From Acidovorax sp. 106 (GTDB lineage Bacteria > Pseudomonadota > Gammaproteobacteria > Burkholderiales > Burkholderiaceae_C): 64,000 nucleotides of DNA. The position numbers and the translations under genes are program-made. Under the pieces are notes generated by a model that was not told the DNA's origin, searched no databases, and saw only the letters and a program-made list of their open reading frames with translations. Every line of letters starts with the position of its first letter. Position 1 is the first letter of the stretch. Location of the stretch: the NCBI RefSeq assembly GCF_003663825.1, contig NZ_RCCC01000001.1, positions 1,744,501 to 1,808,500 on the forward strand, read 5' to 3'. Shown one piece after another: positions 5,949 to 40,686 of this stretch.

Positions 5949-6103
5949 ACCCCAGCCCAATTGGCATGGCGGGGACGCGCTGTCACCACAGCGTCACGGT
6001 GTAGCATTGACCGCCATTTATCCCCTCATTCCATGTCGGTGACTTTGCCCCACAGCCCCCAGCCAGTGCACTGCAGCCTCCCGCCACGGGGGGCCGTGTG
6101 AGC

Positions 6104-9100
6104 ATGGCTGGGCCGGTGCTATCGCCAGCAGAGTCCAAAAGGCTGCAGGCATTGCAGACCTATGCCATTTTGGACACCCCGCAAGAGGCGTCCTTCGACC
6201 AACTGGCCACCCTGGCCACATGGCTGTGCGATGCGCCCATGGCGGTGGTCAACTTTCTGGATGCTGGGCGGCAGTGGTTCAAGGCATCGGTGGGCGTGCC
6301 CCTGCGCGAGACACCGCGCTCGATCGCTTTTTGCGACCACGCATTGCTTACCCCCGAGGTGCCGACCGTGGTGGAAGACGCAACGCTGCACCCGCTATTT
6401 GCCACCAATCCGCTGGTGGTAGGCGAGCCCCACATCCGGTTTTACGCGTGCATTCCCCTGGTCACGGCCGAGGGCCATGCCTTGGGAACGCTGGCGGTGA
6501 TGGATACCCGCAGCCGTGGCCTGAGCGGTGAATCCCTTCAGGCATTGCAGATGCTGGCGCGCCAGACCATGGACCAGCTGGAGCTGCGCCGACAAAAGCA
6601 CCTGCTGGGCCAGATGCTGCAAGAGCGCGACCAGATGCATGCCACCTTGCGCCTGCAAGGCCAGGCACTGGAGGCCGCAGGCCGGGTGGCACGCCTGGGC
6701 GGCTGGATTGTGGAGTTACCCCACCAGCAGCTGACCTTGTCGCCTGAGATGGCGAAAGCCTTTGGCTTCACACAGGCCATCCCCACGCTGACCCAAGTGC
6801 TGGCGGCCTACACGCCCCCTTACCGCGAACGCATGTTGGCGGCATGGCATGCGTGCATGCATGCGGGCACGTCCATCAACGAGGTCGCTGAGATGGTGAG
6901 CCCCCAGGGCCAACTGCTGTGGGTGCGCACGGCAGGGCATGCGGTGCGCAACGCCCAGGGGCAGATCCTTCGCATCCAGGGGGCTTTTCAGGATGTGTCT
7001 GTACAACACCAGGCCGAGATGCAAGCCCAGCGCAACGCCCGCCACCATGCCGATTTGCTGCAGGTACAGCAGCAGATCTCGTCGCTGGACATGGCACTGC
7101 CCGATGCCCTGAAGCTGGTGGCCTATACGGTGCAGCAGCAAACCGGCGCGCGCGGCGCCATGATCGAGCTGCTGGAGGCAGAGCAGCTGGTAGCCAAGGC
7201 CTCGGTGGGCGATATGGTGCGGCCCGAAGGCAACCTGCTGTCGGTGCACGACAGCATCTTGTGGCCCGCGCTTCACAAGGGCCGCACCGTGTGGTGCAAC
7301 GACACCCTGGCCGCAGGATGGGACATGGCCTCCATGCCCCACCGCTTTGGCGTGCGCTCGGTGATGGCAGCGCCTTTGCGGGCGGGCAACAGCATCGTGG
7401 GTTCCTTGAAAGTCACCTCAGACCTGCCCGAGGCCTTTTCTCGCAGCGATGTGGACCGGCTGGAAATATTGACGGAAGCGCTGGGCACCACCGTACAGCT
7501 GCGGCATGTGGCGAGCCAGTTGCAGGCCTCGGCCCAACAGTACCGCCTCATGTTCAACGAACACCCGCACCCCATGTGGGTGTATGAGCGCGCCAGCCTG
7601 CGCCTGCTGGCGGTGAACCAGGCCATGCTCTTGCAGTACGGCTATACCGAGGTGGAAATGCTGCAGATGCACCTGCTGGACCTGTGGCCCCCCAGCAAGC
7701 ATGAAACCGTGCGCGCCGCAGTGCAATCGATCAGCCCCGAGCGTCGGCATGTGCCCGCCATTTGCCCGCAGGTGCGCAAGGATGGCAGCCTGTTTGATGT
7801 AGAAATAACGGCAGGCAGCATTAGCTTCAATGGCGTGGCCGCACGGCAGGTGCTGGCCATCGACATCACCGAGCGGCTGCAATCCGAGCGCGAGATTGCC
7901 CGCATGGCCCGCGCGCAAAAGCTGCTGAGCGCCTGCAACGAAACCCTGGTGCGAGCCACCTCCGAATCGGCCCTGCTGCAGGCCATTTGCCAGATTGCGG
8001 TGGACATTGGCGGCTACCGCATGGGCTGGGTGGGTTTGGCGCAGGACGACGAGCACAAGACCATTGCCCAAGTGGCGTATGCAGGCCACAGCCAGGGCTA
8101 TCTGAAAAAGCTGCACCTGAGCTGGGACGCGCAAAGCCCCCACGGACAAGGCCCTGCAGGGCGGGCCGTGCGCACAGGTGAGCCTGTCATCGTGCACGAC
8201 ATCCGCAACAGCAATGATTTCGGCGAATGGACCCAGCGCATGCTGGACAACGGCTTTCACGGCATCGTTTGCCTGCCGCTGCGCGGGCCAAGCCGCGTCT
8301 TTGGCTTGCTGTACCTGTACGCGCCTGACATCCTGCACATCAGCGCCCAAGAAGTTGCGTTGCTGCAAGAACTGGCCAACGACCTGGCCTTTGGCATCAA
8401 CAGCCTGCGCGCACACCAGGCACAGCAGCGCATGCTGGACTCGGTCATCAAGGTGGCGGCAGCAGTGTCTGCAAGCACCGGCACTGAATTTTTTGTGCAG
8501 CTGGCACGTAACATGGCAGAGGCCCTGGGCGCTCAGGTGGGATGCCTGATCCGCATGTCCGCCTCATCGACTGGCAACCCCCCACGGGCCATCAACATGG
8601 CCACCGTGATCGACGGGCAGGTACAACCGCCGTTTGACTTGCCACTGGACGACACCCCCAGCATGCACCTGCTCACCCAGCGCCAGTACGTGGTGGCCGA
8701 CCAAGTGCTGCAGCAGTACCCGCGCTCGCCCCTGGGCAGCAAGATCAACGCCCGCGCCTATGCAGGCCAGCAGCTTTGCAGTGCAGACGGGGAGGTGATC
8801 GGCGCTATCTTTGTACTGTTCAGGCAGCCACTGGCAGATCCGGACTTCGTCACCTCCACCCTGCAGATTTTTGCGGGACGTGCTTCGGCCGAGATCGAGC
8901 GCCAGACGGCCGACGCCCGCATCCGCCACCAGGCCTCGCTGCTCGATAAGGCACAAGACGCCATCCTGGTGCGCGACCTGGACCACCGCATCATTTACTG
9001 GAACAAAAGCGCCGAGCGCATGTATGGCTGGACCCAGCTGCAGGTGCTCGGGCAACCGGTGCAAACGCTGCTGTACGAAGACCCCACGCCGTTTCTGCGG

Positions 9101-10612
9101 GCCACCGAGGCCACGATAGAGCATGGCGAATGGACGGGCGAGCTGGTGCAACAACACCGCGATGGCCGCACCATCGACGTGGAAGGCCGCTGGACGCTGG
9201 TGCGCGGCGAAGACGGAAGGCCCCAGTCCATTCTGGCCATCAACACCGACATCACTCTGCGCAAGGCCACCGAGCGCGAGATCCAGCGCCTGGCCTTCTA
9301 CGACCCGCTCACCAACCTGCCCAACCGCATGCTGCTGATGGACCGCATGCACCAAGCCCTGGTAGCGGCCCGGCGCCACCAGCAGGGCGGGGCACTGTTG
9401 TTCATCGACCTGGACAACTTCAAACAACTCAACGACACCCTGGGCCACGACCAGGGCGACCTGCTGCTGCAGCAAGTGGCCAAGCGGCTGAGCCACTGCG
9501 TGCGCAGTGTGGACACCGTGGCGCGGCTGGGGGGTGACGAGTTTGTGGTGATGCTGGAAGAGCTGAACCCCTCTGGTGACGAGCTGGTGCTGCAGGCACG
9601 CGGCGTGGGCGAAAAAATCCTGGCCATGCTGTCCATGCCCTACCCATTGCAGGGCTACCAATACCGCAGCACGCCCAGCATTGGCATCGCACCGTTCACC
9701 GGGGTGGCGTCCACCACTGTGGGCGAACTGCTCAAGCAGGCCGACCTGGCCATGTACCAAGCCAAAACCGCCGGACGCAACACCTTGCGGTTTTTTGACC
9801 CGCAGATGCAGGCCGTGGTGACGGCGCGTGCGGCCCTGGAGGCCGACCTGCGCGTGGCCCTGGCGCAAGACGAATTTTTGCTGCACTACCAGCCCCAAGT
9901 GCGCCAGACCGGTGAAATCGCCGGGGTGGAGGCGCTGCTGCGCTGGAAGCATGCACAGCGCGGCATGGTGCCGCCGTCGGACTTCATCGCCCTGGCCGAG
10001 GAAACCGGCCTCATCCTGCCCCTGGGCCGCTGGGTGCTGCACCACGCGTGCAAACTGCTGGCCAGCTGGCAGGACGACCCGCTGCGCCGCGACCTGACCA
10101 TGGCCGTAAACGTCAGCTCCAGCCAGTTCCGCAACGCCAGTTTTGTGGACGACGTGGCGCGGGTGCTGGCCATCACCGGAGCACCTTCGGGCCAGCTCAA
10201 ACTGGAGCTGACCGAAAGCCTGCTGGTGGAAGACATGGAAACCACCATCGCCACCATGGCCGCACTGCGCGCCTATGGCGTGGGCTTTTCGCTGGACGAC
10301 TTTGGCACCGGCTACTCGTCGCTGAGCTACCTCAAGCGCATGCCGCTCGATCAGCTCAAGATCGACCAGAGCTTTGTGCGCGACCTGCTGACCGACCCCA
10401 ACGACGCCGCCATCGTGGACACCATCATCGGGCTGTCGCGCAGCTTGGGGTTGGAAGTGATCGCCGAAGGCGTGGAAACCGCCGAGCAGCGCGCCCTGCT
10501 GGCACGGGCAGGGTGCGAGCTGTACCAGGGCTATTTGTTCAGCAAAGCACTGCCTGAGTCTGAACTGGACGCCTTCTTGAGCGCCAGCCCACAAAGCCAT
10601 CCACAGGGCTAA
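6104..10612 (+). CDS. Multi-sensor diguanylate cyclase/phosphodiesterase (GAF/PAS/GGDEF/EAL)
   Basis: About 1,500 residues with no membrane segment, so a cytoplasmic sensor. Approximate domain order: GAF 20-165, PAS 190-310, GAF 320-470, PAS 480-600, GAF 610-780, GAF-like 790-940, PAS 945-1060, GGDEF 1065-1230, EAL 1240-1490. The GGDEF active-site loop is intact (RLGGDEF). The EAL domain keeps EALLRW, DDFGTGYSSL and LKIDQSFV, so both synthesis and hydrolysis of cyclic di-GMP are possible. ATG 6104 is preferred for spacing from a G-rich run at 6088-6093; GTG 6098 is an alternative. The stop codon directly abuts a long-hairpin repeat. Ligands are unknown. Confidence 0.92.
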   Translation: MAGPVLSPAESKRLQALQTYAILDTPQEASFDQLATLATWLCDAPMAVVNFLDAGRQWFKASVGVPLRETPRSIAFCDHALLTPEVPTVVEDATLHPLFATNPLVVGEPHIRFYACIPLVTAEGHALGTLAVMDTRSRGLSGESLQALQMLARQTMDQLELRRQKHLLGQMLQERDQMHATLRLQGQALEAAGRVARLGGWIVELPHQQLTLSPEMAKAFGFTQAIPTLTQVLAAYTPPYRERMLAAWHACMHAGTSINEVAEMVSPQGQLLWVRTAGHAVRNAQGQILRIQGAFQDVSVQHQAEMQAQRNARHHADLLQVQQQISSLDMALPDALKLVAYTVQQQTGARGAMIELLEAEQLVAKASVGDMVRPEGNLLSVHDSILWPALHKGRTVWCNDTLAAGWDMASMPHRFGVRSVMAAPLRAGNSIVGSLKVTSDLPEAFSRSDVDRLEILTEALGTTVQLRHVASQLQASAQQYRLMFNEHPHPMWVYERASLRLLAVNQAMLLQYGYTEVEMLQMHLLDLWPPSKHETVRAAVQSISPERRHVPAICPQVRKDGSLFDVEITAGSISFNGVAARQVLAIDITERLQSEREIARMARAQKLLSACNETLVRATSESALLQAICQIAVDIGGYRMGWVGLAQDDEHKTIAQVAYAGHSQGYLKKLHLSWDAQSPHGQGPAGRAVRTGEPVIVHDIRNSNDFGEWTQRMLDNGFHGIVCLPLRGPSRVFGLLYLYAPDILHISAQEVALLQELANDLAFGINSLRAHQAQQRMLDSVIKVAAAVSASTGTEFFVQLARNMAEALGAQVGCLIRMSASSTGNPPRAINMATVIDGQVQPPFDLPLDDTPSMHLLTQRQYVVADQVLQQYPRSPLGSKINARAYAGQQLCSADGEVIGAIFVLFRQPLADPDFVTSTLQIFAGRASAEIERQTADARIRHQASLLDKAQDAILVRDLDHRIIYWNKSAERMYGWTQLQVLGQPVQTLLYEDPTPFLRATEATIEHGEWTGELVQQHRDGRTIDVEGRWTLVRGEDGRPQSILAINTDITLRKATEREIQRLAFYDPLTNLPNRMLLMDRMHQALVAARRHQQGGALLFIDLDNFKQLNDTLGHDQGDLLLQQVAKRLSHCVRSVDTVARLGGDEFVVMLEELNPSGDELVLQARGVGEKILAMLSMPYPLQGYQYRSTPSIGIAPFTGVASTTVGELLKQADLAMYQAKTAGRNTLRFFDPQMQAVVTARAALEADLRVALAQDEFLLHYQPQVRQTGEIAGVEALLRWKHAQRGMVPPSDFIALAEETGLILPLGRWVLHHACKLLASWQDDPLRRDLTMAVNVSSSQFRNASFVDDVARVLAITGAPSGQLKLELTESLLVEDMETTIATMAALRAYGVGFSLDDFGTGYSSLSYLKRMPLDQLKIDQSFVRDLLTDPNDAAIVDTIIGLSRSLGLEVIAEGVETAEQRALLARAGCELYQGYLFSKALPESELDAFLSASPQSHPQG

Positions 10613-10725
10613 GAGTGGCTAACAAAACCAAGCGAAGCGGTTCTGGCTAGGCGCTGCGTCGCAGGCAGTACGAGCAGTACGACAAGACGCGGCAACAACG
10701 CCAGAAGAGTTTTGTTAGCCGCTCT
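10612..10725 (+). repeat. Long-hairpin repeat R1
   Basis: A 114-bp imperfect hairpin that begins at the last base of the preceding stop codon. Outer 17-nt arms pair except for one G-T position (AGAGTGGCTAACAAAAC with GTTTTGTTAGCCGCTCT). The inner core contains GCAGGCAGTAC, GACAAGACG and GCAACAACG. Related copies are R2 (next to it), R4 at 11018 and R3 at 62841. It may act as a terminator for the GGDEF/EAL gene. Confidence 0.8.
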
Positions 10726-10726
10726 A

Positions 10727-10832
10727 ATTCCATTTCCAAATCATTCCTGACTAGGCGCGAAGCCGCAGACAGTGCTGAAGTGAAGCACGGCAAGGCGAAG
10801 CAACAACGTCGGGGGTGATTTAGAAATGGAAT
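10727..10832 (+). repeat. Long-hairpin repeat R2
   Basis: The same orientation and core as R1 (CTAGGCGC, GCAACAACG), starting 2 bp after it. Its outer arms are different in sequence from those of R1 but still complementary to each other: ATTCCATTTCC at the left and GGAAT-type sequence at the right, about 18 of 21 positions with G-T pairs among the rest. Confidence 0.75.
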
Positions 10833-10980
10833 AAAAGCCTGTTTGCCCTCTGTCAGGGGCCGCGCAGCGGTCTTTGCGGAGCAGATTCGGTCCTGCCACG
10901 CGCCGAATCTGCCAGCGCCCCCACAGCAGGCGCTACAGGCCCGGCAACGCACCAAGGCTACCCCCCTCATGCCCGGCACC

Positions 10981-11084
10981 CCCTCAGGCGCTGCAAGCGC
11001 TCCTGAGGGCCTTTGGAACGGCGAACACAACCCCCTTTGGCGTCGTTATCCCGTCTTGTCGTGCGGCTTGGCCGTGTTCGCCGT
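10981..11084. repeat. Hairpin plus short long-hairpin repeat R4
   Basis: First a hairpin CCCTCAGG...CCTGAGGG at 10981-11009. Then a truncated member of the R family in reverse orientation: 11-bp perfect arms ACGGCGAACAC (11018-11028) and GTGTTCGCCGT (11074-11084). The reverse strand of its interior reads GACAAGACGGGATAACGACG, like the R1 core. R4 lacks the half of the core that holds GCAGGCAGTAC. It lies inside the gene-free origin-like region. Confidence 0.6.
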
Positions 11085-11225
11085 GCTTAGAACGTCTGCC
11101 CCTTTCGCCTTGCAAGCCCGCATCGCAAGTTCCACACCCCTTTTCATCAGCGTGATGCATTCACTCCAGATTTGGCTTTCGCCCTCGTCATTGCTGAAAC
11201 CGAAAGGGGCTTGCCGGGGCCCGGA

Positions 11226-11422
11226 GTTGTTCTTCTGTCTTCTTCTTAATTTCTTTATAAATACATAGTCGTAGTAGTAGAGCCCGGTGTTTTATGTGGA
11301 CAACTGCTTTTTTCCGTTCGCTGACAAGCACTTGCCGCACGGCAAACCCTGTGCGCCACCCGGTGTTTGTGCTGTCACGCCAACGGGGACAAACTGAGCG
11401 CATCGCCATTTGCTGTGGATAA
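11226..11422 (+). other. Origin-like module 1: AT-rich stretch, DnaA-trio-like repeats, DnaA boxes
   Basis: In order: AT-rich stretch opening GTTGTTCTT and containing TTTATAAATAC; trinucleotides TAG TCG TAG TAG TAG (11266-11280); a GC-rich bridge; a DnaA-box variant TGTGGACAA (11295-11303), 14 nt after the last TAG; and a perfect DnaA box TGTGGATAA (11414-11422). This is the order of the basal unwinding region of bacterial origins (duplex-unwinding stretch, DnaA-trio, first DnaA box). Module 2 repeats it 729 bp to the right. The 11548-11960 interval between them holds no gene or motif I can support. Confidence 0.65.
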
Positions 11423-11489
11423 GCAGGCACTTGTGCCAAAGCTATCCCCAGTCTTATGCAACGCTCCCGGTTTGGAAGGCGTTTTGTAT

Positions 11490-11547
11490 AAAAAATGCCT
11501 CTAACGCATGCTGGATAAGCGCTAACAGCTCATTTTTCAATAGCAAA
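11490..11547. repeat. Dispersed AGCGCT-type palindromic repeat, copy 1
   Basis: A degenerate copy of a short intergenic palindrome seen eight times in the window. It has the pattern TGCCTCTAACGC, a short loop, AAGCGCTAACAGCTC, then the flanking ATAGCAAA found in other copies. It lies between the two origin-like modules. Confidence 0.6.
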
Positions 11548-11966
11548 CCCCACACAACCCGGCGTGGAGGGGGATGTGTACCCGGCGCGGATGCTTGGCC
11601 GCCAGCACACGCAATGCGTGCTTAAAGCCTGTTCAAGGTCTTCAAAGGGGGTCACACAAAGAAACTTGCCGGGATGGGCTGCCCAGGCCTTGCAGCGCCC
11701 CTTACACAGGCTTTGAGGCCCGACATGGCGCCCGTGCCAGTGTTTTGGCGGGCGAGGGGGCCAGGAGCGCCGTTTGCCCCACCCACCCCCAGCCCCTTGG
11801 CTTGATTTACAGCCTGCCGAGCCTGCAGAGGGTCTGCGAAGGCTGGAACTGGCGGCGGAACATGGCCTTCGTTTCTCCAAAGGCCACTTCGGCGGCAAGC
11901 ACCTTGTCATCTCCACCCCGTTTTGGCATCCACCGCACCGGATTTGGGCTCCAAGGATGTTCTTGG

Positions 11967-12190
11967 GTTGTTCTTTTAAAGTCTTATAGATAAATAGCAG
12001 TAGTAGTAGAGCAAGCCATTTTTTGTGGACAACTGCTTTTTCTTGAATAAAAACAGCCACTTGCAGCGCAGACAACCCTGTGCTGCGGTCTGTATGGTTT
12101 GCATGCCTGACAGACAACAACTTTGGCGAAGCGGCTTTTTGTGTGGATAACCCCCCAGTTGCTCCTGAAAAAGCCACAGCGTTGTCCACA
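11967..12190 (+). other. Origin-like module 2: AT-rich stretch, DnaA-trio-like repeats, DnaA boxes
   Basis: Same order as module 1: GTTGTTCTT and an AT-rich run with CTTATAGATAAA; TAG CAG TAG TAG TAG (11995-12009); a bridge; TGTGGACAA (12024-12032), again exactly 14 nt after the last TAG; TGTGGATAA (12132-12140); and a reverse-strand variant box TTGTCCACA (12182-12190). TGTGGACAACTGCTTTTT is identical in both modules over 18 nt, as is GTAGTAGTAGAGC over 13 nt, while the sequence between has diverged. No dnaA gene is adjacent. Confidence 0.65.
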
Positions 12191-12230
12191 GGCGCTCAGG
12201 CTGGTCGGGTCCACCTTGGGGGCCGGGCGT

Positions 12231-12262
12231 AAAAAAACCCGCTCCCCTTGCGGAGGGCGGGT
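12231..12262 (-). terminator. Intrinsic terminator of the Spy-like gene
   Basis: On the reverse strand, ACCCGCCCTCCG...GGAGCGGGT forms a hairpin followed by seven T residues. It lies 40 bp past the stop of the Spy-like gene and separates it from the origin-like region. Confidence 0.85.
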
Positions 12263-12302
12263 CTTCAAGTCTGGTGGCGATCGCCCCGCAGGGGGCGGCG
12301 GA

Positions 12303-12896
12303 TCAGCGGGCGGAGCCTTCTCCGCGTGGGCCTGGGCGGCCGTGGTGTCCATCGGGGCCGCCACGCTTGTCGTGGCCTGGTCCGCCATGGCGCATGCCGG
12401 GGCCGGCGTGGCGGGCTTCGGTGTCAAAGGTTTTTTGCTGCTCTGGCGTCAGGGCGGTGTAGAACTTTTTGACCGCCTCGTCGCGGCGCTCGGCCTGTGC
12501 GGTGTGCTGGGCACGCAGCTCGCGCATGCGGTCGATGCGCTCGGGGGTGGTGAGCTTGTCCAGCTCCTTGGGGTCGGGGCGTGCGGGGCGCTCGCCGGGC
12601 TGCATGGCGGTGGTGAAAGTCGTCCAGGCGCTTTCCTGGCCGGCGGTCAGTTTCAGCTTTTCCTTGAGTGCGGCCTGGCGCTTGGCCATGTGTGCCAGGT
12701 GTTCTTCGTGGCGTTTTTGCATGTCAGGGCCGCCGGGCTTGCGGGCTGGCGCCTCTGCTGCCTTGGTGGCTGCAGCGGGTGCAGGCGGGGGGGTTTGCGC
12801 CAGGGCGGGCAGGGCCAGGGCGGCCAGGAAGGCGGCAGTGGCGGTGCTGGTTGCGGCGGCGGCCATCAGGCGGCGGGTCGAAAATGCGGAGGTCAT
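12303..12896 (-). CDS. Periplasmic Spy/CpxP-like LTXXQ protein
   Basis: About 197 residues from ATG 12896, preferred because AAAGGA sits about 8 nt upstream; an in-frame upstream start at 12932 lacks this. The signal peptide ends near ALAQ. Two LTxxQ motifs are visible (LTAGQESAW and LTPEQQKTF) in a helical, charged protein, as in the Spy/CpxP family of periplasmic chaperones and metal-stress proteins. The C-terminus is a Gly/His/Pro-rich tail (GPGMRHGGPGHDKRGG) that could bind metal. Its neighbours give no operon. Family assignment is good; a chaperone role is inferred. Confidence 0.8.
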   Translation of the reverse strand: MTSAFSTRRLMAAAATSTATAAFLAALALPALAQTPPPAPAAATKAAEAPARKPGGPDMQKRHEEHLAHMAKRQAALKEKLKLTAGQESAWTTFTTAMQPGERPARPDPKELDKLTTPERIDRMRELRAQHTAQAERRDEAVKKFYTALTPEQQKTFDTEARHAGPGMRHGGPGHDKRGGPDGHHGRPGPRGEGSAR

Positions 12897-13089
12897 GGAG
12901 TCAGTCCTTTCACGGGATGTGAATTGGTCCACCGCAACGACCGTTGCAGCGGTTGGGGTCAGTGTGCGCCGCCCGTGTATCGCGCCCGTGAGGGCGCTTG
13001 AAGGCTGTGTAAAGTTGTGACAACCAATGGTTCGCCGACGGTGGCCGTGGGTTATTCACAGCTTGTTCTCACCTCAATTTCAATAAAAA

Positions 13090-13145: not shown

Positions 13146-13263
13146 TGCAGGGGCACTGCTGCCTGCGTTGCGCTGTGTTGCAACCCGCCGGTGCGGCTTG
13201 CTCTGGCCCGGGGCTGGCAGCGCGGACAATCACCCCGTCAGACCAACGAAGCGAAGGATTTCC

Positions 13264-14340
13264 GTGTTCAAGAACTTGATCGTGTACCGCATTGCACCCG
13301 GCTGGCAGGCGGATTTGACGCAGGTGGAAGAGGCGTTGGCCAAGTCGCCTTTTATGGAGTGCGGCGCCACCCAGGAACAGTCGCTGGGCTGGGTGCCCCC
13401 ACGGGGCGATCAGCACGGCGCGATGGCCGAGTCGGTGGGTGGGCAGTGGATCTTGCGCTTCATGGTCGAGTCCAAGGTGCTGCCCGGCTCGGTGCTCAAC
13501 CGCCGCGTGAAGGAAAAGGCTGCCCGCATCGAGCAAGAAACCGGCCGCAAGCCCGGCAAAAAGGAAAGCAAGGAACTCAAGGACGAGGCCAAGCTGGATT
13601 TGCTGCCTATGGCCTTTACCAAGCAGGGCAGCATGTGGGTGTGGATCGACACCGAGTCGCGCCTGCTGGTGTTGGACACAGGCAGCCAAGGCCGTGCCGA
13701 TGAGGTGGTGAGCCTGCTGGTCGAGTCGCTGCCCGGCCTGTCGGTGTCGCTGCTCAACACGCAAACCAGCCCGCAGGCCGCTATGGCGCACTGGCTGTCG
13801 GCCCAAGAGCCGCCCGTGGGCTTCAGCATCGACCGCGAGTGCGAGCTCAAAAGCGCCGACGAGGCCAAGGCCGTGGTGCGCTATGCGCGCCACCCGCTTG
13901 ACATTGACGAAGTGCAGCAACACATCCAGCAAGGCAAACTGCCCACCAAGCTGGCCTTGACCTGGGACGACCGCGTCTCCTTCATGCTCACCGAGGGGCT
14001 GCAGGTGCGCAAGCTGTCGTTTTTGGACACGGTGTTTGAAGGCACCAAGGCCGACGATGGTGGTTTTGACACCGACGTGGCGATTGCTACAGGCGAGTTG
14101 GTCAAGCTGATTCCCGACTTGATCGAAGCCCTGGGCGGCGAGGCCGAAAGCGGCGTGGCCAGCGCGGCCGAAGCCATTGCGGCGGGCGGGGCTGGCAGTG
14201 CCGGGGTTGCAGCCCCCGTCGCAGCGCCTGCAGTCCTGCGCTCTCAGCCCTCGGCCCCGGCCCGCAAGTCGGGCGGCGGCGTGGTCACCGGCCCGGCCAC
14301 GGCGCCAGTGGATACCGACCCGGAATCTGCGCCGTTCTGA
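13264..14340 (+). CDS. rdgC: Recombination-associated protein RdgC
   Basis: 358 residues from GTG 13264, which has AAGGA just upstream and matches the family's N-terminus (FKNLIVYRI). RdgC forms a ring-shaped dimer around DNA and restrains RecA-dependent recombination; it is nucleoid-associated. Conserved segments include LGWVPP, KRTRR-like basic stretches, DDRVSFMLTEGLQVRKLSF and FDTDVAIATGEL. An Ala/Pro-rich tail of about 60 residues follows the folded part and is probably disordered. The gene stands alone between two divergent or convergent neighbours and ends at a bidirectional terminator. Well supported. Confidence 0.93.
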   Translation: MFKNLIVYRIAPGWQADLTQVEEALAKSPFMECGATQEQSLGWVPPRGDQHGAMAESVGGQWILRFMVESKVLPGSVLNRRVKEKAARIEQETGRKPGKKESKELKDEAKLDLLPMAFTKQGSMWVWIDTESRLLVLDTGSQGRADEVVSLLVESLPGLSVSLLNTQTSPQAAMAHWLSAQEPPVGFSIDRECELKSADEAKAVVRYARHPLDIDEVQQHIQQGKLPTKLALTWDDRVSFMLTEGLQVRKLSFLDTVFEGTKADDGGFDTDVAIATGELVKLIPDLIEALGGEAESGVASAAEAIAAGGAGSAGVAAPVAAPAVLRSQPSAPARKSGGGVVTGPATAPVDTDPESAPF

Positions 14341-15626: not shown

Positions 15627-18600
15627 CTATGCCGCAACGGACAACTGCTCCAGCTGGTTCAATGCCTGGAACAGTACTTCCACCTTGGACGTTTCAAACA
15701 CGCCATCCGGCCCTTGTGCATGGATATCTGTGAACGGTGACTCATACAGCCGTGCGGCGGGCATGGCGCCGTGCTCGGTCAGGTGCTGCACGATTTCTTC
15801 GATGAACTGCAGCTGGCTGGCGCTGGCTTGGCCCATACCAATGAGATCTGAGAAGGCAGCCATGGCAGCCTCACGGTCCAGTCCCACCAAAGAGCGCACA
15901 AACACCGGCAGGCTGGTGTGCAGCGCACGCGCGCGTTCGATGTCGCCATCGGTACCGCCCGCCTCGTGCAGCAGGGCTTCCAGCTCTTGCAGGTCGGCGG
16001 CAGTCAGGGGCTGGTTGCGGCGCAGCTTGTGCAGTGCCAGCCGGTCTTCGTGGGCGCGCAAGAACACCTTGGCTTTGGCGCGAAAGCGGTCAAAGTCCAC
16101 CGCGCTCGCCACCAGGGGCAAATCCACTTCGGTGGTCTCGCCGATGGCATCTTCAAAGTCGGTGTAGACCACGGTGCGCCCGCCTTTCTCGATGAGCTTG
16201 ATGAGGCCACGCAGCTTGCGGCGCGCCTGCTCCAGCATGGTCAGGGTCACGTCCTGCCACCACTCATCGCCCGCCACAGCTTCGATCAGCAGCAGGTGCT
16301 CGCGCACCACCGGGATGTTGGCTTTCTCCAGCAAGCCATTGGCCACCTGCTGCACCTTGGTTTGCAGCCGCGCCAGGGCCGGTTCGCTGCGCAGCAGGGC
16401 CAGCTGGGTGTGCAGCAGCAGGGCGTCAAAGCGTTTGGCGTCTTCGTCATCGTCGCGCACTGCGGTGGGCAGGCCCGACAAGTGGGCTGCCACCTCAGTC
16501 AGTTGTTCTGGCGTGGGGCGCTTCCACGCATCGGGCTGCGCCCAGGCCTCTACCCAGCGGCGCTGCGGGCGCACCACAAAGTTGTCGAGCGACATGCCTG
16601 CCACCATGCTGTGCAGCAGACCCGCGGTGTCGCGCCGGATGGCGGCCTCGGTCAGCACGGGCGATTGCTGTGCCTCATCGGCTACGCCGTTGCTGGCCAA
16701 ACGTTTGTCCAGCACTTCGATCAGCTCCAGCCGCGCATTGAAAAGCCGCTGCGACAGCGGCTGGGCCAGCGCGCCTTCGCTGCCCTCCAGCTCCTGGCTG
16801 AAAAACTCCAGGTTCTGGCAAAAGTCGAAGATGAAGAAGTCCTTCTTGTCCTGCCCCGGCCCGTACAGCTCTGGGCACAGCCGGGTGCCGCGCCCCACCA
16901 TCTGCCAGAACTTGGCCTTGGAGCGCACGATCTTGAAGAACACCAGATTCACCACTTCGGGCACGTCAATGCCCGTGTCCAGCATGTCCACCGAAATGGC
17001 GATGTGTGGGGCATCGTTCTTTTGGGAGAAGTCATCAATGAGCGACTGCACGTACTCGGTCTTGAAGGTGATGACCCGTGCGAACACGCCCTTGCGGTCG
17101 GGGTAGTTCGCATCAAAGCGCGCCTGGATGAACTCGGCGTGCTTCTGGTTTTTGGCAAAGATGATGGTCTTGCCCAGCCGGTCGCCGCCCGCCACCTTGT
17201 GGCCGCGCTCCATCAGCAGGGCCAGCATCTTGTCCACCGTATCGGTGTTGAACAGCCACTGGTTGACTGCCTCGGCGCTCACCTCGTCGGGTGCTTCACC
17301 GCCATCCTCATCCCACTCCAGCGCATCCCACTGGTCTTTTTCGTCGTCACTCAGCTCGTCGTAGCGAATGCCCTGGCGCTGGAACTTCAGCGGCACCGAA
17401 ATCGCCTTGGGCGGGGCCAAGAAGCCCTCGGCAATCGCGTCATCCAGGCCATACGCATCGGTAGGCACACCGCTTTCCAGACCAAACAGGCCGTAGGTGT
17501 TGCGGTCGATTTCGTCCTTGGGCGTGGCCGTCAGGCCTACCAGCAGGGCATCAAAGTAGCTAAAGATGGCGCGGTACTTTTGGTAGATGGAGCGGTGTGC
17601 TTCGTCCACCACGATGAGGTCAAAGTGCCCCACGCCAAAGCGGCGCTGGCCACCGCCCGCACCTTCATTGATGAGCCCCATCATCGTGGGGTAGGTGGAC
17701 ACGTACACCCGCCCCTCTGTGGCGCGGTCTGTGACGAGGTTCACCGGCGCAGCATCGGGCAGGTGGGCCTTGAAGGCGTTGACGGCTTGGTTTACCAGCG
17801 CCACCCGGTCGGCCAGAAGCAGCACGCGCTTGGCCCAGCCCGCGCGCATGAGCAAATCCACCAGCGCAATCACCGTGCGCGTTTTGCCTGCGCCCGTGGC
17901 CATCACCACCAGCGCCTTGCGGTGCTGGTCGCGCTCAAAGGTTTCGGCAATGCGGCGGATGGCGCGCTGCTGGTAATGGCGCTCCACAATGCGCGCCGCA
18001 ATGCTGATACTGGCCAGAGGCTTGCGCGTGGTGCGGCGCTGGTGCATCAACTCCAATTCGTCCTGCGTATGAAAGCCCTGCACCGCGCGCGGTGGGCTGG
18101 TGGTGTCATCCCACATCCAGTGCTCATAGCCATTGGTGCCATAGATCACGGGGCGGTGGCCGGTGCTTTTTTGCAGGCAGTCGGCATACAGGCGTGCTTG
18201 CTGCTGGCCCTCTTGGGCGCTGCGGCGGGTGCGCTTGGCTTCCACAATGGCCAGGGGGATTTCGCCGCTCCACAGCACATAGTCCACAAAGCCCTTGCCT
18301 TCGCCCCCAGCCTGGTTGGGCATGCCCTGCACTTCAAACTCGCGGTCACGCGGCTGGTCCAGCGCCCAGCCGGCTTCTTTGAGCAGCAGGTCAATGAACA
18401 GGTCGCGCGTGGCGGCCTCGTTGTAGTCGTGGGCTGTGGCGGGCTGCGCCGCGTTGGCGGCTTTGGCAGCGGCAATCTCGGCGCGGTAGCGGGCCAGTTC
18501 CGCATCCAGTTCTGCATTGCGGGCTGCTGCTTCGCGCAGGGCGGCATCGCGCTCGGCCAGGGCCTGGGCTTGTTTGGCTAGCGCCTCTTGCGCGGCGGCC

Positions 18601-19106
18601 TGGGCGGCACGGCTGGCCGCTTGTTCTTGGGCAGAGTCGATAGCGGCTGGGCGTGGCAGCAGATCGGCGCGAAACTGCAGCCCCGCAGCAGGCCGGTCGC
18701 CCACGCGGCGCGCATAGTGCTGCGCCAGCCAAAAGGCCACATGGAACAGCTCGCGCAGCGCGTTGAGTGCATCTTGCTGCGGCACCGGGCGGGCGTGGTG
18801 CACCGCCTGGTTTCCCAAGCGGCGAATCACGTCCATCTTGGCGTGCACCGCATTGCCCACCAGTTGCTGAAAGCTGGGCTCGAACAAAAACGCCGACAGA
18901 TCGGCCTTGTACGGCATGCGCAGGCTGCCACCCCTGCCGCCTTCCGCCTGGTACAGCCAGGCCACGGCCAGCTCCAGCGTGCGGCGGGCGTAAAAGCAGG
19001 CGGCGCGCGGGTCCCGATGGGCCGCGGCCTCGGCGCGGCGGGCTTCGGCCAGCAGGTCGGGCCAGTCGGGCTGCAGGAAGGCGAAGTTCGATAGGGCACT
19101 GCTCAC
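15627..19106 (-). CDS. hsdR: Type I restriction enzyme, R subunit (EcoEI-like)
   Basis: 1,159 residues. It is the ATP-dependent translocase and nuclease subunit of a type I system. Order: an N-terminal DUF4145-like helical domain (about 8-110), coiled coil rich in Ala/Glu (about 165-220), HsdR nuclease domain with DYVLWSGE...VEAK and the following Q-x3-Y (GQQQARLY), helicase with Walker A MATGAGKT, DEAH box VVDEAHRS and TATPKDE, helicase C with VGRGTRL, and an EcoEI-type C-terminal domain. It is last in the hsd operon but has its own AT-rich, palindrome-bearing leader of 153 bp. All motor and nuclease motifs appear intact. Confidence 0.95.
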   Translation of the reverse strand: MSSALSNFAFLQPDWPDLLAEARRAEAAAHRDPRAACFYARRTLELAVAWLYQAEGGRGGSLRMPYKADLSAFLFEPSFQQLVGNAVHAKMDVIRRLGNQAVHHARPVPQQDALNALRELFHVAFWLAQHYARRVGDRPAAGLQFRADLLPRPAAIDSAQEQAASRAAQAAAQEALAKQAQALAERDAALREAAARNAELDAELARYRAEIAAAKAANAAQPATAHDYNEAATRDLFIDLLLKEAGWALDQPRDREFEVQGMPNQAGGEGKGFVDYVLWSGEIPLAIVEAKRTRRSAQEGQQQARLYADCLQKSTGHRPVIYGTNGYEHWMWDDTTSPPRAVQGFHTQDELELMHQRRTTRKPLASISIAARIVERHYQQRAIRRIAETFERDQHRKALVVMATGAGKTRTVIALVDLLMRAGWAKRVLLLADRVALVNQAVNAFKAHLPDAAPVNLVTDRATEGRVYVSTYPTMMGLINEGAGGGQRRFGVGHFDLIVVDEAHRSIYQKYRAIFSYFDALLVGLTATPKDEIDRNTYGLFGLESGVPTDAYGLDDAIAEGFLAPPKAISVPLKFQRQGIRYDELSDDEKDQWDALEWDEDGGEAPDEVSAEAVNQWLFNTDTVDKMLALLMERGHKVAGGDRLGKTIIFAKNQKHAEFIQARFDANYPDRKGVFARVITFKTEYVQSLIDDFSQKNDAPHIAISVDMLDTGIDVPEVVNLVFFKIVRSKAKFWQMVGRGTRLCPELYGPGQDKKDFFIFDFCQNLEFFSQELEGSEGALAQPLSQRLFNARLELIEVLDKRLASNGVADEAQQSPVLTEAAIRRDTAGLLHSMVAGMSLDNFVVRPQRRWVEAWAQPDAWKRPTPEQLTEVAAHLSGLPTAVRDDDEDAKRFDALLLHTQLALLRSEPALARLQTKVQQVANGLLEKANIPVVREHLLLIEAVAGDEWWQDVTLTMLEQARRKLRGLIKLIEKGGRTVVYTDFEDAIGETTEVDLPLVASAVDFDRFRAKAKVFLRAHEDRLALHKLRRNQPLTAADLQELEALLHEAGGTDGDIERARALHTSLPVFVRSLVGLDREAAMAAFSDLIGMGQASASQLQFIEEIVQHLTEHGAMPAARLYESPFTDIHAQGPDGVFETSKVEVLFQALNQLEQLSVAA

Positions 19107-19179
19107 GGGGACTCCCTCTTTGTCATCCGGTCACCGATACCCAGCCCATTGGGGCAGTGGGTTTGACCCGCTATCTAAC

Positions 19180-19247
19180 GCTCTATATAGAGCATATTGC
19201 TTTAAGCAGCTTATATAAGTCATTGTTTTTGAACAATATTTTTGTTC
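19180..19247. promoter_or_regulatory. Palindromic leader before hsdR
   Basis: Within 68 AT-rich bp there are three dyads: GCTCTATATAGAGC (19180-19193, perfect 14-mer), CTTATATAAG (19210-19219, perfect) and GAACAA-TATTT-TTGTTC (19231-19247). This is a plausible separate promoter with operator sites, giving hsdR control independent of hsdM and hsdS. Inferred; no controller protein was identified nearby. Confidence 0.5.
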
Positions 19248-19259
19248 TCTAAAGCACTG

Positions 19260-20897: not shown

Positions 20898-20917
20898 GGT
20901 GATAACCGTGTGCAGGT

Positions 20918-37775: not shown

Positions 37776-37821
37776 GGGTGCCATTGAATCACACCGGGTG
37801 GACAGGATTCCTGCGCAGGGG

Positions 37822-37837
37822 TGTTTCACGTGAAACA
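37822..37837. other. parS site 2 (perfect)
   Basis: TGTTTCACGTGAAACA, a perfect 16-bp palindrome equal to the parS consensus bound by chromosomal ParB. It lies between the FMN reductase gene and mnmG, 3.6 kb before parA. Confidence 0.95.
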
Positions 37838-38029
37838 AGGGGGCTTGCCGGGGCGCGTTACCACCTGCTCCAAGGGCCATGCGCAGACACAAAGCGCGCA
37901 AAGTGGGAAAATCAGGGGTTACCCGCAATCGCCCTGGCCTGCGCCGACAGCACCCTGTGCCCGGCCCGGCAGCGCGATCTTGCTGCTGGTGTTTTTTTAT
38001 CGGGCCCGCCAGGGCCCCGGAGCGCTCCC

Positions 38030-40018
38030 ATGTTGTACCCCCAGGAATTTGATGTGATCGTCGTCGGCGGTGGCCATGCTGGCACCGAGGCCGCGCTGGC
38101 CGCTGCCCGCATGGGCAGCAAAACCTTGCTGCTGTCCCACAACATCGAGACCCTGGGGCAGATGAGTTGCAACCCCAGCATTGGCGGCATTGGCAAGGGC
38201 CACTTGGTCAAAGAGGTGGATGCCTTGGGCGGCGCGATGGCGCTGGCGACGGACGAGGGCGGCATCCAGTTTCGCATTCTCAACAGCTCCAAAGGCCCTG
38301 CGGTGCGTGCCACACGGGCGCAGGCCGACCGCATTTTGTACAAGGCCGCCATCCGCCGCATGCTGGAGAACCAGCCCAATCTGTGGCTGTTCCAGCAGGC
38401 GGTGGACGACCTGATGGTGGAGGGCGACCGCGTGGTGGGAGCGGTGACGCAGGTGGGCATTCGGTTCCGCTCGCGCACGGTAGTGCTGACGGCAGGAACC
38501 TTCCTCGACGGCAAGATCCACGTAGGCCTGAATAACTACGCCGCAGGCCGGGCAGGGGACCCACCCGCCGTGTCGCTGTCGGCACGCCTCAAGGAGCTGA
38601 AGCTACCGCAAGGGCGCCTCAAAACGGGTACGCCTCCGCGCATTGACGGCCGCAGCATCGACTTCAGCCAGTGCGAGGAGCAGCCCGGCGATGGCATGCC
38701 CGGTGGGGTGAACGAAGGCACCGTGCCTGTGTTCAGCTTTATGGGCAATGCGCAGATGCACCCGCAGCAAATGCCGTGCTGGATCACCCACACCAACGAG
38801 CGCACGCACGAGATCATCCGCAGTGGCTTTGACCGCAGCCCCATGTTCACCGGCAAGATCGAAGGCGTGGGCCCGCGCTATTGCCCGAGTGTCGAAGACA
38901 AGATCAACCGCTTTGCCGACAAGGACAGCCACCAGATTTTCCTGGAGCCCGAAGGCCTGACTACGCACGAGTACTACCCCAACGGCATCAGCACCAGTTT
39001 GCCGTTCGACATCCAGTACGACCTGGTGCGCAGCATGAAGGGACTGGAAAACGCGCACATCCTGCGCCCCGGCTACGCCATTGAGTACGACTACTTTGAC
39101 CCGCGCTCGCTCAAGAGCAGCTTTGAGACGCGCCAGATCCAGGGTCTGTTCTTTGCCGGGCAGATCAACGGCACCACGGGCTATGAAGAGGCGGCAGCGC
39201 AAGGCTTGTTTGCGGGCATCAATGCCGCGCTGCAATGCCGTGGCGAGGCCGCCTGGCTGCCCGGCCGGGATGAGGCCTACCTGGGTGTATTGGTGGACGA
39301 CCTCATCACCAAGGGCGTGACCGAGCCCTACCGCATGTTCACCAGCCGCGCCGAGTTTCGCCTGCAGCTGCGCGAGGACAACGCCGACATGCGCCTGACC
39401 GAGGCTGGCCGCAAGATGGGCCTGGTGGACGATGCGCGCTGGGACGCCTTCAGCCGCAAGCGCGACGCTGTTTCACGTGAAACAGAGCGCCTCAAAGCCA
39501 CCTGGGTGAACCCGCGCAACCTTCCCGCAGCCGAGTCTGAGCGCGTGCTGGGCAAGAGCATTGAGCACGAGTACAACCTGTTTGAACTGCTGCGCCGCCC
39601 AGATGTGTCGTACCAGGCGCTGGCCAGTATGGATGGCGGCAAATACACCAGCCCCGGTGTTTCACGTGAAACGCTGGGTGACCTGAGTGAGTCGGTCATT
39701 GAACAAGTGGAGATTGCGGCCAAGTACGCGGGCTACATTGACCGCCAGAAGGGTGAGGTGGAGCGTGCTGCCCATTACGAAAAATTGCGCCTGCCCGCCG
39801 AGCTGGACTACATGCAGGTGACGGCACTCAGCATTGAGGCCCGCCAGGCACTGACGCGCCACCGCCCTGAAACCCTGGGCCAGGCCTCGCGCATCACGGG
39901 CATCACCCCCGCCGCGATTTCGCTGCTGATGGTGCATTTGAAAAAAGGCGGCTTCAAGGACTTTGCCTTGCCTACGGACAAGGTGACGGCCAAGGCCGAG
40001 GGCGAGGTGGCTGCATGA
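38030..40018 (+). CDS. mnmG: tRNA U34 carboxymethylaminomethyl-modifying enzyme, FAD subunit
   Basis: 662 residues from ATG 38030 ([22 protein letters not shown]); a longer open frame upstream has no family similarity. With MnmE it modifies the wobble uridine of several tRNAs. Present: the FAD-binding [17 protein letters not shown], the [16 protein letters not shown] signature, the [13 protein letters not shown] segment and the helical C-terminus that contacts MnmE. It overlaps rsmG by 4 bp. Its coding region carries two parS sites, at 39469 and 39658, which the protein sequence tolerates as VSRET. Confidence 0.97.
39469..39484. other. parS site 3 (perfect, inside mnmG)
   Basis: A perfect TGTTTCACGTGAAACA within codons for AVSRETE of MnmG. 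Confidence 0.95.
39658..39673. other. parS site 4 (15 of 16, inside mnmG)
   Basis: TGTTTCACGTGAAACG, one change at the last base, within codons for GVSRETL, 189 bp after site 3. Confidence 0.93.
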
Positions 40019-40686
40019 GCGCCGTGACCCACGACGCTTTGCAAGCGCGCCTGCAAGAGGGTGCCCAGGCCCTGGGTTTGGCCCTGACCGATGCGCAGCT
40101 TGCGCAGTTGATGGAGTTCCTGTCCCTGCTGCAAAAGTGGAACAAGGTCTACAACCTGACGGCGGTGCGCGACCCGCAAGAGATGCTGACGCACCACCTG
40201 CTCGACAGCCTGGCTGCCGTGGCGCCACTGCGCCGCCATGTAACGACCTTGGGGCGGGGCGGGGCGGGCGTGAGACTGCTGGATGTGGGTTCGGGCGGTG
40301 GCCTGCCCGGTGTGGTGTTTGCCATCTGCTGCCCGGATGTGGATGTGAGTTGCGTGGACACGGTGGGCAAAAAGGCCGCCTTCATCCAGCAAGCGGCGGT
40401 AGCACTCAAGCTGCCCAACCTGCATGGCGTGCACGCACGGGTGGAGACGCTGACCACGCCGTTTGACATCGTCAGCTGCCGGGCGTTTGCCTCGCTGCCT
40501 GATTTTGTGACTTGGTCGCGCTCGGCCCTGGCCGCGCCGCATGGCGTGTGGCTGGCCATGAAGGGCAAGCACCCTGAGGATGAAATCGCTGCATTGCCTG
40601 CTGACGTCGCGGTGTTTCACGTGGAACAACTCACGGTGCCCGGGCTGGATGCAGAGCGCTGTATTGTCTGGATGAAGCCCGCATAA
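40015..40686 (+). CDS. rsmG: 16S rRNA G527 N7-methyltransferase
   Basis: 223 residues, overlapping mnmG by 4 bp (ATGA). It methylates G527 of 16S rRNA. The class I SAM site is [18 protein letters not shown], preceded by [15 protein letters not shown] that is typical of RsmG (GidB). The 3' part carries a parS variant at 40613. The mnmG-rsmG pair near parAB is a common origin-proximal arrangement. Confidence 0.96.
40613..40628. other. parS site 5 (15 of 16, inside rsmG)
   Basis: TGTTTCACGTGGAACA, one internal change, in codons for VFHVEQL of RsmG, 0.8 kb before parA. Confidence 0.9.

What the first reader, a model, noticed from the sequence alone, without database searches (positions are those of the whole stretch)
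11226..12190. Two tandem oriC-like modules with DnaA-trio-like TAG repeats, without dnaA
Seen: two modules 729 bp apart, each with GTTGTTCTT and an AT-rich run, five TAG-type trinucleotides, a 14-nt bridge, TGTGGACAA, and a perfect TGTGGATAA about 100-110 nt on; module 2 has a further TTGTCCACA. TGTGGACAACTGCTTTTT is identical in both, while linking sequence has diverged. Known: this order (unwinding stretch, DnaA-trio, GC spacer, first DnaA box in this orientation) is that of bacterial origin unwinding regions. Inferred: this is a chromosome origin, or a twin origin, in a 1.7-kb gene-free stretch. The absence of dnaA, dnaN and rpmH beside it is unusual for the group.
Basis: partly seen in the sequence, partly recalled or inferred. 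Interest (0 to 1): 0.85.

Follow-up and report, generated by a model that had tools for sequence, protein, structure and literature searches.

The report
Twin-module chromosome origin far from dnaA
This is very probably where the bacterium's chromosome starts copying itself, and it carries two copies of the DNA-opening module side by side, an arrangement kept across nearly all sampled members of its genus, which makes it possible to test whether a bacterial chromosome can have more than one place to open.

Summary
In detail: both modules are at the stated coordinates, and 0 of 300 shuffles gives either pattern. The window lies in a 4.88-Mb single-contig Acidovorax genome, about 42 kb downstream of dnaA-dnaN-gyrB. 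Over 538.5 kb the cumulative GC-skew minimum falls at window 11,939, between the modules; the genome's three parS matches lie 26-29 kb away. So this is very probably the chromosome origin, away from dnaA. The same holds, at 21-85 kb, in 18 of 18 Acidovorax genomes with both on one contig.

Module plan: AT-rich tract, DnaA-trios, 14-bp bridge, DnaA box, IHF-like site at +27, second box at +118/119, inverted box at +158 (not strict in module 1). 38 of 42 Acidovorax genomes carry exactly two such box pairs in tandem; reversed-pattern control 0 of 42. Modules 1 and 2 are separate classes. In some other genera modules lie 2-9 kb apart, in G063 with genes between and three modules.

DnaA-trio origins are known; repeated unwinding modules look like a new variant. 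Whether each fires is untested.

The parts
10613..12302 (.). gene-free origin region between the GGDEF/EAL gene and the LTXXQ gene
   Evidence: no Rfam match at gathering threshold in 10400-12600
11226..11265 (+). module 1: AT-rich unwinding tract
   Evidence: 72% AT over 11226-11271 against 36% in the window
11266..11280 (+). module 1: DnaA-trios TAG TCG TAG TAG TAG
   Evidence: in 28 Acidovorax pairs the array is present in all, with TGG for TCG in one and TAA as last trio in five
11281..11294 (+). module 1: 14-nt bridge
   Evidence: last TAG to box 14 nt in 23 of 28 and 17 nt in 5 of 28
11295..11303 (+). module 1: DnaA box 1, TGTGGACAA
11322..11334 (+). module 1: IHF-like site TGACAAGCACTTG, 7 of 9 consensus positions
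   Evidence: +27 is the best-scoring offset over 161 modules
11414..11422 (+). module 1: DnaA box 2, TGTGGATAA, at +119
   Evidence: 28 of 28 pairs at +119
11454..11462 (-). module 1: TTATGCAAC at the place of module 2's inverted third box (probable decayed counterpart)
   Evidence: a strict inverted box within 260 nt is seen in 0 of 28 module-1 copies
11967..11994 (+). module 2: AT-rich unwinding tract
   Evidence: 74% AT over 11967-12000
11995..12009 (+). module 2: DnaA-trios TAG CAG TAG TAG TAG
12010..12023 (+). module 2: 14-nt bridge
   Evidence: 28 of 28 pairs have 14 nt
12024..12032 (+). module 2: DnaA box 1, TGTGGACAA
12051..12063 (+). module 2: IHF-like site AAACAGCCACTTG, 7 of 9 consensus positions
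12142..12150 (+). module 2: DnaA box 2, TGTGGATAA, at +118
   Evidence: +118 in 26 of 28, +119 in 2 of 28
12182..12190 (-). module 2: inverted DnaA box 3, at +158
   Evidence: 24 of 28 module-2 copies at +158/159; 4 of 28 have none within 260 nt
11939..11939 (.). cumulative GC-skew minimum of the contiguous 538.5 kb around the window
   Evidence: contig position 1,756,439
6098..10612 (+). left flanking gene, GAF/PAS/GGDEF/EAL protein; found beside the modules in relatives
12303..12932 (-). right flanking gene, LTXXQ family; found beside the modules in relatives
13168..14340 (+). rdgC (mechanical ORF; true start probably GTG at 13264); lies between modules in some genera
37822..40628 (.). the three parS matches of the genome (37822, 39469, 40613), in and beside the mnmG ORF (37778-40018), with a parA-type gene at 41461-42267

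Best explanation
This is the chromosomal replication origin region of an Acidovorax species, lying about 42 kb downstream of dnaA. It consists of two same-orientation DnaA-trio modules. In each, DnaA would bind box 1. An IHF/HU-type bend at +27 would bring in DnaA bound at the box at +118/119 and, in module 2, at the inverted box at +158. A DnaA filament would run from box 1 across the bridge onto the TAG trios, open the adjacent AT-rich tract and load helicase. The two modules would be joined by DnaA-DnaA contacts, with module 2 (three strict boxes) probably the stronger and module 1 a second, weaker or differently timed opening site. Shown here: location, skew, parS, box geometry and conservation of both modules. 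Inferred: DnaA and IHF binding, unwinding at each module and cooperation between them. The confidence given is for location plus twin-module anatomy; rivals 1 and 2 accept both and differ only in how the modules share the work.
For: Cumulative GC-skew minimum between the modules; AT and keto extremes at window 11,030-11,035. Of 16 further skew samples, 15 fit a switch here and another between 4.02 and 4.40 Mb, around the opposite pole at 4.20 Mb. The three parS matches are 26-29 kb away. In 8 relatives (159-252 kb each) the GC-skew minimum lies within 0.8 kb of a module in 5 (G011, G033, G015, G063, G247) and the keto minimum within 1.4 kb in 5 (G011, G033, G015, G247, G018); either in 6, both in 4; within 1.4 kb of dnaA in none. 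Box-pair geometry: 41 of 42 Acidovorax genomes match, 38 exactly twice, reversed-pattern control 0 of 42; family 79 of 200 genomes, 49 of 115 genera, control 0 of 200. The modules are distinct classes: mean identity 0.77 among module-1 and 0.80 among module-2 copies across species, 0.645 between classes within a genome and 0.640 across genomes. An IHF-like site sits at a fixed offset: exact in 10 of 161 modules there, exact at no other tested offset of that strand.
Against: No copy-number or footprint data. Skew is weak: G004 and G007 place neither minimum at the modules (G007's keto minimum is 6.5 kb from the start of the dnaA C-terminal domain), G018 fails by GC and G063 by keto; the own-genome sample at 1.90 Mb has the wrong sign. 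The window's IHF-like sites match only 7 of 9 positions. 121 of 200 family genomes lack a strict box pair, and G002, an Acidovorax of 100% completeness, has none. In other genera not every module keeps the strict +119 box: one module each in G247, G173 and G235 lacks it. A recalled dif pattern found nothing.
Confidence: 0.88

Rival explanations
1. Rival 1 (same location and anatomy): only module 2 unwinds. Module 1 is a DnaA-binding and looping partner with a vestigial trio, as oriC1 is to oriC2 in Helicobacter pylori.
For: Module 1 has no strict third box in 28 of 28 pairs while module 2 keeps it in 24 of 28. Bipartite origins of H. pylori and B. subtilis have the unwinding element in one part only (PMC8235120, passages).
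Against: Module 1 keeps its trio array and a +119 box in 28 of 28 and its bridge at 14 or 17 nt in 28 of 28. A pure binding partner would not need the trio.
Confidence: 0.35
2. Rival 2 (same location and anatomy): the modules are two independent, redundant origins; either can start a round of replication alone.
For: Both have all the core sequence elements (box, bridge, trio, AT-rich tract). In some other genera modules sit 2-9 kb apart; G063 has three over 29 kb with genes between the first two. GC skew is nearly flat between the G063 modules at 40.1 and 49.3 kb.
Against: At 729 bp apart, skew cannot separate two starts. The two classes are differentiated rather than copies. PMC4403523 states that in 2015 there was no evidence of two functional origins used on one bacterial chromosome (part 1 of 2 read).
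Confidence: 0.25
3. The true origin is at dnaA-rpmH as in many bacteria. The window modules are a DnaA titration or regulatory site.
For: rnpA-rpmH-dnaA-dnaN-gyrB is intact about 42 kb away with one strict DnaA box in its gap and a one-mismatch box near the dnaA start. G007's keto minimum is 6.5 kb from dnaA.
Against: Skew minimum at the modules in the own genome, within 1.4 kb of dnaA in 0 of 8 relatives. No trio-plus-box array in the dnaA gap. A titration site needs no trio or AT-rich tract.
Confidence: 0.04
4. The modules come from an integrated plasmid or other mobile replicon.
For: A restriction-type HsdR gene and an AlbA-like gene lie nearby (15627-21167).
Against: The same flanking genes (EAL and LTXXQ) stand at the modules in 16 of the 20 loci, and with rdgC in loci of several other genera; skew and parS fit the chromosome.
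Confidence: 0.01

Closest known systems
BUS (basal unwinding system) of bacterial oriC: DnaA box plus DnaA-trios (PMC8287927; term search and Results part 1 of 2)
   Same: Each module has at least three trios of the favoured type 3'-GAT-5' (TAG read 5'-3') within 16 bp of a DnaA box.
   Different: Two BUS-like modules in one origin. The part read speaks of BUS sequences within each origin, and the words 'two BUS' and 'bipartite' do not occur in the main text; supplements were not read.
Bipartite oriC of Helicobacter pylori and Bacillus subtilis (PMC8235120, passages)
   Same: Two DnaA-box clusters in one origin region. In some relatives genes lie between the parts; in G289 the two modules flank dnaA.
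   Different: There the unwinding element is in one part only; here each part has its own trio and AT-rich tract. dnaA is not between the parts in this genome.
Escherichia coli oriC left half: DUE, R1, IHF site, further boxes (PMC10380432, passages)
   Same: Opening region, first box, IHF-type site and a further box in the same orientation. E. coli dnaA is also remote from oriC (recalled).
   Different: The opening region uses TAG trios; boxes are 118/119 bp apart; the unit is repeated; neighbours are EAL, LTXXQ and rdgC genes, with mnmG 26 kb away.
Putative double origins, and two autonomously replicating elements of Pseudomonas aeruginosa, as told in Gao 2015 (PMC4403523, part 1 of 2 read)
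   Same: More than one origin-like region proposed for, or isolated from, one chromosome.
   Different: The four tabulated cases rest on at least three boxes, skew and gene neighbours; none is described in the part read as a tandem pair of trio modules. The P. aeruginosa elements were not examined here.

Membership tests
Chromosomal oriC | lies at the skew switch of the chromosome | tested here: met
   minimum at window 11,939 over 538.5 kb; in relatives at the modules in 6 of 8 by at least one of two skew measures, 4 of 8 by both
Chromosomal oriC | cluster of DnaA boxes beside an AT-rich tract in non-coding DNA | tested here: met
   five strict boxes in 896 bp
Chromosomal oriC | replication starts there in the cell | not testable with these tools
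   needs marker-frequency data
BUS | at least three DnaA-trios within 16 bp of a DnaA box (PMC8287927) | tested here: met
   both modules, 14-bp bridge
BUS | DnaA-dependent strand separation needing box and trios | not testable with these tools
   no biochemistry here
Bipartite oriC (H. pylori / B. subtilis type) | two DnaA-box subregions | tested here: met
Bipartite oriC (H. pylori / B. subtilis type) | dnaA lies between the subregions | tested here: not met
   dnaA about 42 kb away; seen in the relative G289
Bipartite oriC (H. pylori / B. subtilis type) | a single unwinding element, in one subregion | tested here: not met
   by sequence both modules carry trio and AT-rich tract; function untested
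E. coli-type oriC | IHF site close to the DUE-proximal box | tested here: inconclusive
   IHF-like site at fixed offset across fetched modules, only 7 of 9 positions in the window
E. coli-type oriC | GATC-rich, SeqA-regulated (recalled) | not tested
   not examined
E. coli-type oriC | mnmG adjacent (recalled) | tested here: not met
   mnmG ORF starts at 37778, 26 kb away

The most novel reading that the evidence does not exclude
In Comamonadaceae the chromosome is started from a dispersed origin of two or three individually competent DnaA-trio unwinding modules, two differentiated classes kept apart since before the genus Acidovorax. In some genera they are separated by 2-9 kb, with genes between, so that natural bacterial chromosomes do carry more than one opening site. 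(Odds lowered from 0.45 after recheck: one module each in G247, G173 and G235 lacks the strict +119 box.)
Probability: 0.42. Interest if true: 0.88.

Novelty: new variant of a known kind. Interest (0 to 1): 0.72.

Why it matters
Bacterial chromosomes are generally held to have one opening site each. Here 38 of 42 sampled genomes of a genus keep two modules with box spacing fixed to within a few base pairs by the search, and to one base pair in the 28 pairs measured, and some other genera have modules kilobases apart. That gives a natural system for asking whether two unwinding sites can serve one chromosome, how two helicases are loaded, and why one might be spared or delayed. It also says where to look for the origin in Acidovorax: not at dnaA. 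That matters for growth-rate estimates from metagenomes and for the habit of rotating genomes to start at dnaA.

Tried and rejected
dnaA-rpmH as the origin: rejected on skew and lack of a trio array. Integrated replicon: rejected by shared flanks. Recent duplication or gene conversion of the modules: rejected, because modules 1 and 2 of one genome are no more alike than those of different genomes. A structured RNA in the gap: no Rfam match at gathering threshold. A third trio-plus-box module elsewhere in 1.49-2.03 Mb of the own chromosome: none found by the scan; the rest of the chromosome was tested only with the patterns. Skew in G004 and G007 did not single out the modules. Literature on an oriC in Acidovorax or Comamonadaceae, or on repeated trio modules: the listings showed none whose title or abstract start describes it; five of the listed papers were opened, in part. 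DoriC tables and paper supplements were not consulted, so earlier notice cannot be excluded.

Full report
WHAT IS THERE. The trio-box arrangement and the box pair each occur twice in the window and in none of 300 dinucleotide shuffles. TGTGGACAACTG occurs twice in the whole 4,884,083-bp genome, both times here (the same pattern read backwards, a control, also occurs twice in the genome, so the rarity of that word alone proves little). The gap between the GGDEF/EAL gene (ends 10612) and the LTXXQ gene (12303-12932, minus) is 1.69 kb; mechanical ORFs cross it, the two Pfam-supported genes lie outside it, and the ORFs inside were not searched.

WHERE IT IS. The window is C1:1,744,501-1,808,500 of a single-contig genome with one dnaA match, at 1,713,130. 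rnpA, rpmH, dnaA, dnaN and gyrB stand together there (ORFs and sequence; names other than dnaA by recognition of the sequences, not by a search). The rpmH-dnaA gap has one strict TGTGGATAA, a one-mismatch box near the dnaA start and no trio-plus-box array. The genus is Acidovorax: contigs of handles G008, G023 and G024 have the same lengths as named Acidovorax contigs.

IT IS VERY PROBABLY THE ORIGIN. Over the contiguous 1,490,001-2,028,500 the cumulative GC skew has its minimum at 1,756,439, window 11,939, between the modules; AT-skew and keto extremes lie at window 11,030-11,035. Of 16 samples of 20 kb along the chromosome, nine from 4.40 Mb through zero to 1.62 Mb are negative and six from 2.10 to 4.02 Mb positive; one, at 1.90 Mb, is negative and so has the wrong sign. 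The second switch brackets 4.20 Mb, half a chromosome away. The three parS matches of the genome lie at window 37,822, 39,469 and 40,613, by mnmG and a parA-type gene. In eight relatives (six with 200 kb, G063 with 252 kb, G247 with 159 kb) the GC minimum lies within 0.8 kb of a module in five: G011, G033, G015, G063, G247. The keto minimum lies within 1.4 kb in five: G011, G033, G015, G247, G018. G063's keto minimum and G018's GC minimum lie elsewhere, and G004 and G007 fail by both. No minimum lies within 1.4 kb of dnaA; the nearest is G007's keto minimum, 6.5 kb off.

DISPLACEMENT. dnaA was sought in 36 Acidovorax genomes, own included, and found in 33. In the 18 whose modules and dnaA share a contig the distance is 21-85 kb, always downstream and in the same orientation. 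Elsewhere in the family it varies (26 genomes examined). G289 has modules on both sides of dnaA in opposite orientation; G138 and G192 have a trio module within a few hundred bases of the dnaA end. Many others are 40-120 kb away, and G116, G297 and G312 further, some inverted relative to dnaA.

ANATOMY. Of 30 Acidovorax loci, 28 held both modules and two held one; the other genomes of that call were not given loci. In the 28 pairs the second box is at +119 in 28 module-1 copies, and at +118 in 26 and +119 in 2 module-2 copies. The inverted third box is at +158/159 in 24 of 28 module-2 and 0 of 28 module-1 copies. The last TAG is 14 nt before the box in 28 of 28 module-2 and 23 of 28 module-1 copies, 17 nt in the other five, whose last trio is TAA. 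The modules are 465-1003 bp apart. Module 2 begins TAGCAG in 24 of 28 and module 1 TAGTCG in 27 of 28. Mean identity over 71 nt up to and including box 1 is 0.77 among module-1 and 0.80 among module-2 copies, and 0.645 and 0.640 between classes within and between genomes, so there is no sign of homogenisation. The two classes are also seen outside Acidovorax, for example in Paracidovorax and Simplicispira loci (where 35 of 38 sources, chosen for likely pairs, showed two modules by that pattern). Over 161 distinct box-pair modules from all fetched loci (mostly Acidovorax, near-duplicates included) the IHF consensus scores best at +27 (mean 6.2 of 9 against 2.4 over all offsets; 10 exact there, none exact at other offsets of that strand). 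The two window sites score 7 of 9.

BREADTH. The pattern box-N108-112-box, which says nothing about trios, matches 41 of 42 Acidovorax genomes, 38 of them exactly twice, on one contig and strand. G031, G003 and G021 match once and G002 not at all; reversed control 0 of 42. In 200 genomes of the family it matches 79 (49 of 115 genera), control 0 of 200; 25 genomes, own included, match two or three times. At least two extra matches (G150 contig 8; G154 at 3,072,870) lack the shared interior and look accidental, and the two of G244 are nearly identical, 10 kb apart, perhaps a recent repeat or an assembly matter. The trio pattern matches 113 of 300 family genomes; its reversed control also hits in a good number of genomes, and several of its own hits look like coding sequence, so it is the weaker test. 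The named scan found 97 stretches, 80 listed: most titles name Comamonadaceae genera (Acidovorax, Hydrogenophaga, Simplicispira, Paracidovorax, Pseudorhodoferax, Diaphorobacter, Comamonas granuli and others) or Burkholderiales bins, a few are unrelated (Aestuariibacter, an archaeon, actinobacteria).

NEIGHBOURS AND SPREAD-OUT MODULES. Of the 20 loci, 16 hold both EAL and LTXXQ relatives at the modules; L059 and L044, on short contigs, hold right-hand genes only; L050 and L052, probably accidental matches, hold none. In G063 three modules (40.1, 49.3, 69.4 kb) all have the +119 and inverted +159 boxes, with LTXXQ, rdgC, a dicarboxylate symporter and a histidine kinase between the first two. G174, G173, G235, G247 and G325 have trio modules 1.8-9.1 kb apart; G174 and G325 keep the second box in both, but one module each of G173, G235 and G247 lacks it. 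G042, of another family, has two modules 391 bp apart without the +119 box but with the inverted box, about 50 kb from dnaA if its contig is circular. Other families are hardly sampled: 24 genomes, one match.

MECHANISM. Inferred from the anatomy and from what PMC8287927 (Results part 1 of 2 read), PMC8235120 (passages) and PMC10380432 (passages) report for other species: DnaA at box 1, a bend at +27, further DnaA at +118/119 and +158, a filament onto TAG trios across the 14-bp bridge, opening of the AT-rich tract. That both modules do this is the open point. Conservation of trio and bridge in module 1 speaks for it; its missing strict third box speaks for a weaker or different role.

NOVELTY. 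DnaA-trio origins, bipartite origins and dnaA-remote origins are all known. A conserved tandem of two trio modules, and spread-out versions of it, I did not see in the listings of nine searches of the open library. DoriC tables, paper supplements and closed journals were not searched.

Noticed in passing
own genome C1:1,142,426-1,147,811 (locus L257 2426-7811), outside the window: Seven TTATCCACA boxes in 5.4 kb, all within CAACARAGTTATCCACAGAAA, around hemE (PF01208), 0.6 Mb from the skew minimum; no trios seen in the flanks printed; perhaps a DnaA titration locus. PMC4403523 lists a putative second origin next to hemE in Ralstonia pickettii.
   Followed up: partly
own genome C1:3,869,898 and 3,870,182 (locus L258): Two further TTATCCACA boxes 284 bp apart in mutually similar surroundings.
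   Followed up: no
window 10612-10842: Two adjacent long imperfect inverted repeats fold as strong hairpins (z -4.7 and -2.6) just after the EAL gene; they may be dispersed palindromic repeats.
   Followed up: no
G063 (loci L221, L222): Three modules over 29 kb with genes between the first two; GC-skew minimum 0.2 kb from the first, keto minimum elsewhere.
   Followed up: partly
G100:C1:67318 and 166428; G195:C89:51654 and 149772 (loci L289-L292): Two species of one genus carry box pairs (spacing 120) 98-99 kb apart on one contig, each preceded by trio-like repeats that fit TAG less well.
   Followed up: partly
G289 contig 13 (locus L230 4201 and 6328): Two trio modules (boxes with one mismatch) flank dnaA in opposite orientation, like a bipartite origin with an unwinding element on each side.
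   Followed up: partly
locus L229, module with its box at 458 (minus strand): The DnaA-trio run is expanded to at least fifteen TAG repeats.
   Followed up: no
G002: The only one of 42 Acidovorax genomes without a box-pair match; its origin was not located.
   Followed up: no
window 15627-21167: Restriction-type HsdR-like helicase gene and an AlbA/Schlafen-type gene near the origin; HsdR relatives (83% identity) also lie near modules in G063 and G154.
   Followed up: no
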